A stretch of 64,000 nt of DNA from contig CAIIXF020000005.1 of assembly GCA_903813345.2 (NCBI GenBank), positions 18,169,375 to 18,233,374 of the forward strand. Direction: 5' to 3'. The position numbers and the translations under genes were made by a program. The stretch is from Owenia fusiformis (lineage: Eukaryota > Annelida > Polychaeta > Sabellida > Oweniidae). The stretch's first letter is position 1; the number at the start of each line of letters is the position of its first letter. Under the pieces are notes generated by a model. The model saw nothing but the letters and a program-made list of their open reading frames with translations, made no database searches and was not told where the DNA came from. Shown piece after piece: positions 33,836 through 45,535 of the stretch.

Positions 33836-36800
33836 ATGTATGATCCAGAAGAAGGTATATTTTGTTCTAATTTTTGCTTCGAAATACTTGTATCTATTTT
33901 TATGGGAATTTTTCTTTATCAATTTTCAGGCCTTAGATTTATATGTTCCCAAAATGTTCAACCTTTTCTAATTTAAAAAAACTATGTTATATGCAAAATT
34001 TGATATAACCTCTGAAAATGCAAATGCTTGGTTTATGTGCTTTAGTGTTGTGCTTCTAAAATGATGTCAAATTCCAAATCTAGAAAGAATATCTTGTCTT
34101 GTCGTGACGAAACATATATCATAAACTTGACAATAAAAACAAAGGCTGTTTTACAATTTTTCAGAGCAGATGTATGAGGATGAAGATCATGATGATATCA
34201 CAGCTGATTTGTGGCAGGAGGCGTGTTGGATTGTCATATCTTCCTACTTTGACGAAAAGGGTCTCGTACGTCAACAGCTTGATTCTTTCGATGAGTTCAT
34301 CCAGATGTCTGTGCAGCGTATTGTGGAAGACTCCCCTCCCATAGACCTACAGGCAGAGGCTCAGCATTCTTCTGGCACCATTGACAACCCTGTATGTGTT
34401 TCACTGCTTCTAGTTACTTACCCTTTGCATTCCTTCAACTTGGCTTCTTAAAAAGAGAGCTTCGACTTCATATAACTATGTGCGCAGGGTACTAGTTATT
34501 GTAAAAGAACTTATGTATGATCAATATAATTGATCCTTATTAACTTAATCTGAAAGTGTTATTGTCAACTTTTAGAATATCGCATTAACATGATTGTTTT
34601 AAAGTCTTCAGTTCAGTTAAGATAGTCTTGGATAGAAATTTCAAATGTGAGAAAAGTCTTGCAACAAATACATTTATTGGCCATTTTGCTTTCAGCCCCG
34701 ATATCTTCTTAAGTTTGAGCAGATTTACCTGTCCAAACCGACCCATTGGGAGAAAGATGGAGCCCCTAGTCCTATGATGCCCAATGAAGCAAGATTGAGG
34801 AATTTAGTGTAAGCTCTTGAAAATAAAACACAAATTTAAATACAACAATAGAGCAGTGTTGTTGTGATAGAAACTGCTTCCAGGATATAAATTTACATAC
34901 AATTTTTGTCAATATTTTCCAGGTATTCTGCCCCATTATATGTAGACATCACAAAGACAGTAATAAAGGAGGGTGAAGACCCTGTTGAGACCCAACATCA
35001 GAAGACATTCATAGGCAAAATACCAATCATGTTGAGGTCTACTTACTGCCTATTGAATGAACTGACAGATCGTGATTTGACAGAGTTGAACGAATGCCCA
35101 CTTGATCCTGGTGGATATTTTGTCATCAATGGATCTGAGAAAGTCCTCATCGCACAAGAGAAAATGGCAACTAACACAGGTAACAGAATTTTGTATTCTC
35201 CAGTCATTAAACAAGTGCAGTAGAATCATTTTTGGTCTTGCCTTGTTTGCAGAAAGGGAATATTTGCTCAAAGAAATTCAGATGAGCCTAGAACAATGAA
35301 CCATTAGCATTTCTAATAATAACTTTTTTGTAGATTTTGACAAAATTTGTCCTTTATTTCAGTGTATGTGTTCCAACAGAAAGATTCAAAGTATGCTTAC
35401 AAGACAGAAATTAGGTCATGTCTAGAACACTCATCTCGTCCTACCAGTACATTGTGGGTGAACATGATGGCTAGAGGTGGTTCGGTAAGTGATGGTCAAG
35501 TGGGGAGGTGTGATATTTTAACTAACTGGATGTACAGATGTTGGTTATTAGTGAAGATCTATGACTGACAATCTGCAAAAACAACATTAACTTTAGCTTG
35601 GAAGGAATAGTTTTTACCAAGAATGGTTACCCAAAACATGGTTTAATTTGTTGCTCTTGAGATTATGATATCCTATTCTTCATCTTGATTCACAGTGATT
35701 CTAAGCTCAACAGGACTGATCAAGAGCCAGAAATTCTAGCAATTTATTTTGAAAAATTACATAATAGTAAGTAAAAAGCTTCTATAGAATATAAATAATA
35801 TATAATGATAAAACTATCATAATGTAAAGCACTACTTTTATTAGATCCATATGCTTTATATATGTTTTTTCCATTTGTTTTTAGGGAGTAAAAAAGAGTG
35901 CTATTGGGCAGAGGATCATAGGTATCCTCCCCTATATCAGACAGGAAGTACCAATCATCATTGTATTCAGAGCTCTCGGCTTTGTGTCTGATAGAGATAT
36001 TCTAGAGCATATCATATACGACTTTGATGACCCAGAAATGATGGAAATGGTAAGTTGTAAAAAAAGTCTGGATATGAAATGTATATAGAAATACGGTTTA
36101 GGCCATTCTTCCAGTAATTCAAATCTCATTTTGTTTTGAAGTTCTTTGATTTATACAGCTTTATGATGTAAAATATCAATGGCTTTCATCTCTGTAATAT
36201 CATTATATTTTTTCAAATTTTCCCCATCAGGTCAAGCCTTCCCTTGATGAAGCCTTTGTGATACAAGAGCAGAATATTGCTCTCAACTTCATAGGAGCCA
36301 GGGGTCTCCATTAAATCATTATATTTTTTCAAATTTTCCCCATCAGGTCAAGCCTTCCCTTGATGAAGCCTTTGTGATACAAGAGCAGAATGTGGCTCTC
36401 AACTTCATAGGAGCCAGGGGTCTCCATTAAATCATCATATTTTTTCATATTTTCCCCACCAGGTCAAGCCTTCCCTTGATGAAGCCTTTGTGATACAAGA
36501 GCAGAATGTGGCTCTCAACTTCATTGGAGCCAGGGGTGCCAGGCCAGGTGTAACCAAAGAGAAGAGGATCAAATATGCTAGAGAGGTGCTTCAGAAAGAA
36601 ATGTTGCCTCATGTTGGTGTCAGTGACTTCTGCGAAACAAAGAAGGCATATTTCCTTGGGTATGAAATTGTCTCTGTATTATGGTTTTATCTGGGATTAT
36701 GCGATAAATAGATGGAAAGGATTATGTTTAGAAATAAAAAATTCTCTGATAATTTTTTTTTCAAGACAGAAATGGAATTCTTTGATTTAAAAACTCTTAT

Positions 36801-45535: not shown

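What the first reader, a model, noticed from the sequence alone, without database searches (positions are those of the whole stretch)
35653..45345. POLR2B introns host two families of C/D-box snoRNA-like sequences
Eleven or more RPB2 introns contain ~75-nt sequences with a terminal stem, C box (ATGATGA or ATGATTA), an internal D'/C'-like pair, a D-type box and a conserved rRNA-complementary guide. Family 1 is in introns 5, 9, 11, 13, 14 (decayed), 15 (remnant), 19 (truncated), 20 and 21; family 2 is in introns 7 (decayed), 8, 10, 12 and 17. Conservation is confined to the snoRNA-sized unit while the rest of each intron differs. I know of no snoRNA host role for POLR2B. The spread by copying from intron to intron, with visible decay stages, looks like an active birth-and-death snoRNA cluster.
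Basis: partly seen in the sequence, partly recalled or inferred. Interest (0 to 1): 0.88.

Follow-up and report, generated by a model that had tools for sequence, protein, structure and literature searches.

The report
snoRNA copies filling POLR2B introns
In this animal, most introns of the gene for a core RNA polymerase II subunit carry copies, intact or decaying, of two small RNA genes that look built to guide chemical marks onto ribosomal RNA, and no further copies were found elsewhere in the genome.

Summary
Introns of a POLR2B (RPB2) gene carry ten intact box C/D snoRNA-like units on the host strand. Family 1 is in introns 5, 9, 11, 13, 20 and 21; family 2 in introns 8, 10, 12 and 17. Four or five relics lie in other introns. 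Boxes, terminal stem and a 12-13 nt guide next to D or D' match this genome's own 28S rRNA. A rule-based scan of 64 kb, both strands, returned nine of the ten units and nothing else. In the 498-Mb genome, every DNA match and every exact guide-plus-box match found lies in POLR2B.

Family 2 carries the SNORD21 guide (human 28S Gm1316), but at D' instead of D. Family 1 predicts methylation of the 28S G equal to yeast 2409, mapped in plants (no guide known in Arabidopsis) and absent from the yeast and human lists read here.

Most flanks are unrelated, so snoRNA-sized pieces were copied between introns, or homogenised there. Cis-duplication of C/D snoRNAs in one host is a known process; this host, density, interleaving and guide placement are new to me. 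No RNA or methylation data were available; the species is unidentified ("mollusc" unconfirmed).

The parts
34149..45535 (+). POLR2B (RPB2) host gene, as far as modelled; a short upstream first exon is assumed and was not located
   Evidence: tblastn hits with recalled human RPB2; splice model, 21 exons and 20 introns, boundaries set by eye; PDB match of one exon
35653..35727 (+). Family 1 unit, intron 5; C box altered (ATTATGA), guide and D box kept; counted among the ten intact units
   Evidence: missed by the scan because of its C box
37630..37704 (+). Family 1 unit, intron 9, intact
38535..38609 (+). Family 1 unit, intron 11, intact
39929..40003 (+). Family 1 unit, intron 13, intact; best Rfam score SNORD36 27.6 bits, below its cut-off of 30
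44598..44672 (+). Family 1 unit, intron 20, intact; outer stem pair changed from G-C to U-A on both sides
45271..45345 (+). Family 1 unit, intron 21, intact; terminal stem 10 bp including flank
40420..40502 (+). Family 1 relic, intron 14, decayed
   Evidence: (E 0.003)
41046..41070 (+). Family 1 relic, intron 15, 3' part only (guide with one change, D box)
   Evidence: not found by the model
42984..43026 (+). Family 1 relic, intron 19, 5' half only, followed by a tandem repeat array
   Evidence: (model match 42984-43046, E 5.2e-7)
37170..37253 (+). Family 2 unit, intron 8, intact but diverged; terminal stem differs from the others and still pairs
38106..38181 (+). Family 2 unit, intron 10, intact
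39477..39551 (+). Family 2 unit, intron 12, intact; stem extends 4 bp into flank
41908..41982 (+). Family 2 unit, intron 17, intact, identical to intron 12
36739..36812 (+). Family 2 relic, intron 7, decayed
   Evidence: E 4.1e-5
36104..36190 (+). Possible family 2 relic, intron 6, weak; end set by eye
   Evidence: (36104-36145, E 0.4)

Best explanation
The units are intron-encoded box C/D snoRNA genes that use POLR2B as host. After splicing, each debranched intron would be trimmed by exonucleases to the terminal stem, leaving a 75-84 nt RNA whose C/D and D'/C' motifs bind the fibrillarin complex (established pathway, inferred here). Family 2 would direct 2'-O-methylation of the 28S G equal to yeast G639 and human Gm1316 (1303 in older numbering), the SNORD21 site, through a guide at D'. 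Family 1 would direct methylation of the 28S G equal to yeast G2409 and Arabidopsis Gm2410, through a guide at D. Both families multiplied inside POLR2B by copying of snoRNA-sized segments from intron to intron; some copies have decayed. Shown: anatomy, guide match, no copy found outside this gene, unit-sized similarity. Inferred: expression, processing, methylation, copying route.
For: C/D boxes, terminal stem and guide in register. A rule-based scan of 64 kb, both strands, gave 9 hits, all of them intact units on the host strand (thresholds set after seeing the units). Guides match own 28S: 12 nt in 6 of 6 family 1 units, 13 nt in 4 of 4 family 2 units. Box-adjacent control: 1 of 1414. In intron 12 the family 2 guide plus box equals the SNORD21 consensus except the two spacer letters and one weakly conserved base, and human Gm1316 is assigned to SNORD21 (PMC5597630 passage; PMC8881200 passage). 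Site numbering: 27 of 29 letter comparisons with known yeast and Arabidopsis sites agree, the two misses being one and the same position, yeast 2256/At 2257; 2281 and 649 were the anchors and agree by construction. Guide block kept 15 of 15 where intron 8 differs from intron 10, 12 or 17 at 30-33 of 68 other positions, Fisher p <= 0.0007. Confinement. At most one unit per intron, all on the sense strand.
Against: No Rfam family reaches its gathering score in the window. No RNA or methylation data. Family 2's C box is the variant ATGATTA and its D box ATGA in 4 of 4 units, and its D guide has no convincing target. Family 1's D' box (CTTGA) is atypical; the best rRNA match just before it is 10 Watson-Crick pairs plus one G-U in intron 13 only, and intron 21 has an 11-nt or longer complement to SSU away from any guide position, which shows how easily such matches arise. 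Folding energy is unremarkable in 6 of 7 units tested. Stem covariation in family 1 rests on one pair and is not significant (67 of 500 shuffles). Distance to the 3' splice site varies from 85 to 690 nt. The pattern control had 3 forward matches, so its 4 matches count by place more than by number.
Confidence: 0.88

Rival explanations
1. The copies are old: orthologous introns of related species hold them too, and ectopic gene conversion keeps the short snoRNA segments alike. There was little recent spreading. (This rivals the copying part, not the snoRNA part.)
For: Introns 12 and 17 are 100% identical over 75 nt with unrelated flanks, which recent conversion would also give. Family 1 falls into two location groups: position 31 is T in introns 5, 9 and 11 and A in introns 13, 20 and 21.
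Against: Introns 5, 9 and 11 share flank beyond the unit, which fits duplication of a slightly larger piece. Diverged (intron 8) and decayed copies have escaped homogenisation.
Confidence: 0.35
2. The units are a short interspersed element or another mobile element, and the snoRNA look is incidental.
For: Multiple copies, sharp edges, decayed and truncated forms.
Against: No copy was found outside POLR2B in 498 Mb; the units and model-found relics are in one orientation; both guides match 28S beside a box. Caveat: the DNA search did not list the diverged intron-8 copy, so diverged copies elsewhere could be missed too. Target duplications were not tested.
Confidence: 0.03
3. The units are expressed C/D RNAs acting on host pre-mRNA or another RNA, not mainly rRNA guides.
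For: Family 1's region before D' is largely conserved without a convincing rRNA target, and so is family 2's region before D in introns 10, 12 and 17.
Against: The strictly kept guide of each family matches 28S beside a box, and one is a known rRNA guide.
Confidence: 0.06
4. All or most copies are inert relics of snoRNAs and are no longer made.
For: Five other introns hold relics or possible relics; the intron-5 C box is altered.
Against: Guide and D box are invariant in 6 of 6 family 1 units. No other locus with these exact guide-plus-box patterns was found in the genome, so loss would leave the SNORD21 site without an evident guide.
Confidence: 0.07

Closest known systems
SNORD21 (U21), Rfam RF00068
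   Same: Guide UUGUUUCAAGACGG, a 2-nt spacer and CUGA as in family 2; same predicted target, human 28S Gm1316/G1303 (passages)
   Different: In SNORD21 the guide is at the 3' D box; in family 2 it is at the internal D' box. Rfam score at most 21.6 bits against a cut-off of 63. SNORD21 lies in RPL5 in human (recalled)
Cis-duplicated C/D snoRNA paralogues in one host gene (human SNORD58 in RPL17; gas5-like genes in vertebrates)
   Same: Several copies of one C/D family in introns of one gene; 59.5% of human C/D families with two or more expressed members have all of them in one host (PMC8178906 passages); intragenic duplication dominates in chicken (PMC2653536 passages)
   Different: Host is an RNA polymerase II subunit gene; two families interleaved; intact or relic copies in 13 to 15 of the 17 introns from 5 to 21
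Arabidopsis 25S Gm2410 / tomato and tobacco Gm2412 / O. tauri Gm2252 site
   Same: Same rRNA nucleotide as predicted for family 1 (PMC11542601 section 6 with Table 2; letters checked)
   Different: No C/D snoRNA is identified for it in Arabidopsis (asterisk in that table); human and yeast columns are blank. The section's text says the alga's sites were predicted from annotated C/D snoRNAs, so an algal guide may exist; I did not look it up
SNORD36 and snoR21 (Rfam RF00049, RF00352)
   Same: Best Rfam scores for family 1 (27.6 bits) and family 2 intron 8 (26.6 bits), from general C/D layout
   Different: Both below cut-off; SNORD36 targets are given as 18S A668 and 28S A3703 (passage), not the family 1 site

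Membership tests
Box C/D snoRNA | C box RUGAUGA near the 5' end, family 1 | tested here: met
   5 of 6 units; intron 5 has ATTATGA
Box C/D snoRNA | C box RUGAUGA near the 5' end, family 2 | tested here: inconclusive
   Variant ATGATTA in 4 of 4 units
Box C/D snoRNA | D box CUGA near the 3' end | tested here: inconclusive
   Family 1: 6 of 6 CTGA. Family 2: 4 of 4 ATGA at D; its D' is CTGA in 3 and ATGA in 1
Box C/D snoRNA | Terminal stem closing the boxes | tested here: met
   10 of 10 units, 5-10 bp with G-U allowed; the intron-8 stem has a different sequence and pairs throughout
Box C/D snoRNA | Guide of 10 nt or more ending just before D or D', complementary to rRNA | tested here: met
   10 of 10 units, 12 or 13 nt, against own 28S
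Box C/D snoRNA | Stable RNA, fibrillarin binding, methylation five nucleotides from the box | not testable with these tools
   No RNA data held
SNORD21 | Guide to 28S G1303 (1316) | tested here: met
SNORD21 | Guide located at the 3' D box; Rfam gathering score reached | tested here: not met
   Guide at D'; 21.6 (intron 8) and 15.2 bits (intron 12) against 63; introns 10 and 17 not scored one by one
SNORD36 | Rfam gathering score and SNORD36 targets | tested here: not met
   Best 27.6 against 30; guide pairs with a different 28S site
snoRNA retroposon or SINE | Dispersed copies in the genome | tested here: not met
   7 of 7 and 3 of 3 matches inside POLR2B
snoRNA retroposon or SINE | Target-site duplications and A-rich tail | not tested
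   Only flank identity was measured

The most novel reading that the evidence does not exclude
In this lineage POLR2B has become the single snoRNA nursery for two rRNA marks: it took over the SNORD21 function with the guide moved from the D to the D' slot, and it supplies a guide for a 28S Gm that the lists read here give only for plants (mapped) and a green alga. Copies move between introns of this one gene as mature-RNA-sized pieces, possibly by an RNA-templated route confined to the locus, and their number ties rRNA marking to output of a polymerase II subunit.
Probability: 0.25. Interest if true: 0.72.

Novelty: new variant of a known kind. Interest (0 to 1): 0.52.

Why it matters
A single gene shows copies of two snoRNA families from identical to decayed, in defined introns, with no copy found elsewhere. 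That makes it a natural test of how C/D snoRNAs move between introns, which the passages read here call likely recombination in cis (PMC8178906) or still enigmatic (PMC2653536). It also gives sharp predictions: a methylated 28S G absent from the human and yeast lists read here, and a SNORD21-type mark delivered from a D' guide.

Tried and rejected
First target assignments were wrong: from memory I took the family 1 site for yeast Gm2288 and the family 2 site for about yeast 895 (notes).

Folding energy does not help. Longest rRNA complement alone is weak. Rfam at gathering finds nothing in the window. Rfam SNORD15 in the whole genome gave 4 matches, none over the cut-off, and also rang below the cut-off in 8 of 14 control genomes; three of the four are U15-like by guide. 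The haemocyanin domain search for the animal group was empty and its controls were silent. Paper searches for POLR2B, RPB2, RNA polymerase II subunit genes or RpII140 as snoRNA hosts listed 5, 0, 0 and 0 papers; the 5 were judged irrelevant from title and start of abstract. The library lacks most subscription journals. A search for mollusc, oyster or bivalve with snoRNA matched 11,113 papers at two of five terms, and none of the 15 listed had snoRNA genes as its subject by title. No collection held related animal genomes, so orthologous introns were not compared.

The thresholds of the scan and the 24-column stretch (p 0.0014) were chosen after seeing the units. The rRNA used is partial: LSU and SSU fragments from L007, L008 and L009, some reading N and some possibly not from a functional unit. 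Models R1 and R2 were built from all ten intact units, which therefore match by construction.

Full report
The window holds a POLR2B (RPB2) gene on the + strand. tblastn with a human RPB2 protein recalled from memory finds its exons. A splice model with 21 exons, its boundaries set by eye to fit GT...AG, gives 20 introns and an open frame ending in MMVEGTARI. One exon (42205-42489) matches 14 distinct PDB sequences at E <= 1e-20, all named RPB2 or RNA polymerase subunit beta or second largest subunit, best E 5.6e-46.

Family 1 has six intact units of 75 nt at 35653, 37630, 38535, 39929, 44598 and 45271 (introns 5, 9, 11, 13, 20, 21), 89-95% identical in pairs. Layout: an 8-bp terminal stem (GCTCTTGA/TCAAGAGC), C box ATGATGA or GTGATGA, an internal CTTGA and ATGATTC or GTGATTC pair, the guide AAGCTCAACAGG, one spacer base, D box CTGA. 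In intron 5 the C box reads ATTATGA. Family 2 has four intact units at 37170, 38106, 39477 and 41908 (introns 8, 10, 12, 17). Layout: terminal stem, C box variant ATGATTA, guide TGTTTCAAGACGG, two spacer bases, D' box CTGA (ATGA in intron 8), C'-like TTGATTA or TGATGATT, D-type box ATGA, stem. Introns 12 and 17 are identical over the unit; intron 8 shares 50-53 of 83 aligned positions with the others.

Relics: covariance models built only from the intact units find intron 19 (42984-43046, E 5.2e-7), intron 14 (40420-40502, E 0.003) and intron 7 (36739-36812, E 4.1e-5), and weakly intron 6 (E 0.4). The intron-15 remnant is seen as a repeat of the 3' part and is not found by the model. Counting introns 5 to 21, 13 of 17 carry an intact unit or a model-supported relic, 15 of 17 if introns 6 and 15 are included, and in introns 16 and 18 none was found. 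No intron was found to hold two. Elsewhere in the 64 kb, and on the other strand, all other model matches have E above 1.

Genome-wide, DNA searches with one unit of each family gave 7 matches and 3 matches, all inside POLR2B on the host strand. The second search did not list the diverged intron-8 unit, so it is not sensitive to old copies. Pattern searches for guide plus box gave 6 forward and 0 reverse matches for family 1 (control 0) and 4 forward and 0 reverse for family 2 (control 3 forward), all matches in POLR2B. Withheld stretches read N, and patterns were exact, so a diverged guide elsewhere is not excluded.

The guides match this genome's own 28S. Fragments of LSU and SSU rRNA were located by pattern and confirmed by Rfam. 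The longest unbroken Watson-Crick complement of each intact unit to these fragments is the guide next to the box: 12 nt in 6 of 6 family 1 units, 13 nt in 4 of 4 family 2 units. Other complements come close: intron 21 has a 13-position run to SSU with one G-U, away from any guide position, and intron 13 has a 10-pair match before D' that the other copies lack. As a run anywhere in a 75-nt piece the guide is only mildly unusual: 0-11 of 1000 dinucleotide shuffles and 5-29 of 1000 random window pieces reach it. The position makes it strong: among 1414 [CA]TGA boxes outside the units, both strands, 1 has a Watson-Crick run of 12 or more ending within 3 nt, against one box in each of the 10 units. 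A simple rule-based scan (C box, D box, stem of 5 or more, guide of 11 or more) returned 9 hits in 64 kb on both strands, all intact units; intron 5 fails by its C box. Its thresholds were chosen after seeing the units.

Selection on the RNA: in family 1, 15 of 75 columns vary, and none of these lies in columns 44-67, which hold most of C', the guide and the D box (p 0.0014 for a fixed stretch, chosen afterwards; 0.017 for guide and D box alone). In family 2 the 15-nt guide block is unchanged between intron 8 and the others, while 30-33 of 68 other aligned positions differ. The terminal stem of intron 8 has a different sequence from the others and pairs at 8 of 8 positions (the first is a U-G wobble), with the fourth pair U-A instead of C-G. 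The sixth and seventh pairs differ among introns 8, 12 and 17 and still pair. Intron 10 is mispaired at the sixth and eighth, intron 17 at the eighth. In family 1 one pair changes on both sides (intron 20), which is not significant alone (67 of 500 shuffles). Folding energies are unremarkable in 6 of 7 units tested.

Target sites: with the fifth-nucleotide rule (established knowledge), the family 1 target is the G of CCCUG before UUGAGCUU and the family 2 target the last G of CCCG before UCUUGAAACA. I fixed numbering by checking the letters of known sites against the L007 and L009 rRNA: 27 of 29 comparisons agree, several positions being in both lists and 2281 and 649 agreeing by construction; the two misses are yeast 2256 and its Arabidopsis partner 2257, probably because of an indel upstream. 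The family 1 G lies between the agreeing sites 2395 and 2417. Family 2 points at yeast 639, ten nucleotides before Am649. Since yeast Am649 is human Am1313 in older numbering (PMC8817022 table passage), and if no indel lies in those ten nucleotides, the site is human 1303, now 1316. This is Gm1316 assigned to SNORD21 in a human map (PMC5597630 table passage; also PMC8881200 passage). The Rfam SNORD21 consensus has the same guide, spacer length and box. In SNORD21 it is the 3' D box; in family 2 it is the D' box. Family 1 points at yeast 2409, which is Arabidopsis Gm2410, tomato and tobacco Gm2412 and O. tauri Gm2252 in Table 2 of PMC11542601 (section 6 read). Arabidopsis is marked there as lacking an identified guide, the human and yeast columns are blank, and the text calls the alga's sites predictions from annotated snoRNAs. 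A human list shows 3899 and 3925 but nothing at 3913, the place 12 nt before 3925 (passage), and the yeast table passages seen show none at 2409 or 639.

How the copies spread: inside the units identity is 89-95% in family 1 and 100% between introns 12 and 17, while flanks of most pairs are at background. Introns 5, 9 and 11 share 60-80% identity in the adjoining 10 nt on both sides, and position 31 separates introns 5, 9, 11 (T) from 13, 20, 21 (A). Neighbouring copies are thus more alike, which fits copying within the locus. Papers read in passages describe C/D families as mostly sitting in one host gene and attribute it to likely cis recombination or intragenic duplication (PMC8178906; PMC2653536). 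The unit ends coincide with the expected ends of a mature snoRNA, so an RNA-templated local route or gene conversion between short segments is also open. I cannot separate these without relatives.

Membership: the units meet the C/D features that could be tested, with reservations (family 2 C box ATGATTA and D box ATGA; intron 5 C box). They are not filed as SNORD21 or SNORD36, since defining features were tested and not met. POLR2B as a snoRNA host was not found in four paper searches of an open-licence library; that is not proof of absence from print.

A comparison from the same genome: U15-like snoRNAs were met at C6 (two copies about 900 bp apart, on the minus strand beside an exon that reads like ribosomal protein S13, by eye) and a compact one at C10. 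So cis-duplicated snoRNAs beside a classical host gene exist here too, at two copies in the 18 kb examined.

Verdict: by its sequence a cluster of intronic C/D snoRNA genes, a known kind of thing in an unexpected host, at unusual density, with one transplanted guide and one guide for a site absent from the human and yeast lists read. Expression and methylation remain untested.

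Noticed in passing
36189-36536: A 116-bp unit spanning the end of intron 6 and the start of the next exon is repeated three times in tandem; the first two copies look like pseudo-exons with acceptor-like ends.
   Followed up: no
43030-44210: Tandem repeats of about 145 bp in intron 19, interrupted by an element at about 43712-44173 with 14-bp perfect inverted ends (TAGGGGTGAGACGA) that looks like a small DNA transposon. The family 1 relic ends about where the array begins.
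   Followed up: partly
38622-38991: Two inverted-repeat pairs just after the intron-11 unit, arms 29 and 33 nt, possibly small DNA elements.
   Followed up: no
40865-41004: Inverted repeat with 25-nt arms in intron 15, just before the family 1 remnant.
   Followed up: no
L013, L014 (G000:C6:22933766-22934823, minus strand): Two U15-like snoRNAs about 900 bp apart beside an exon resembling ribosomal protein S13 (by eye); below Rfam's cut-off.
   Followed up: partly
L016 from 1501 (G000:C10:7215385-7215454): A compact U15-like unit of about 70 nt with two guide-like stretches (GATGACAAG and ACAAGGCATTTG, each before TCTGA), much shorter than the 146-position Rfam model.
   Followed up: partly
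L009 (G000:C501): An SSU rRNA match is followed closely by an LSU fragment on the same strand; order and spacing look unlike a normal rDNA unit.
   Followed up: no
45500-45650: The RPB2 reading frame ends VEGTARI instead of the recalled human ending, and a short piece (GCTAGGATATA...GGCCAGGTGTACAGTGTG) recurs around and after the stop.
   Followed up: no
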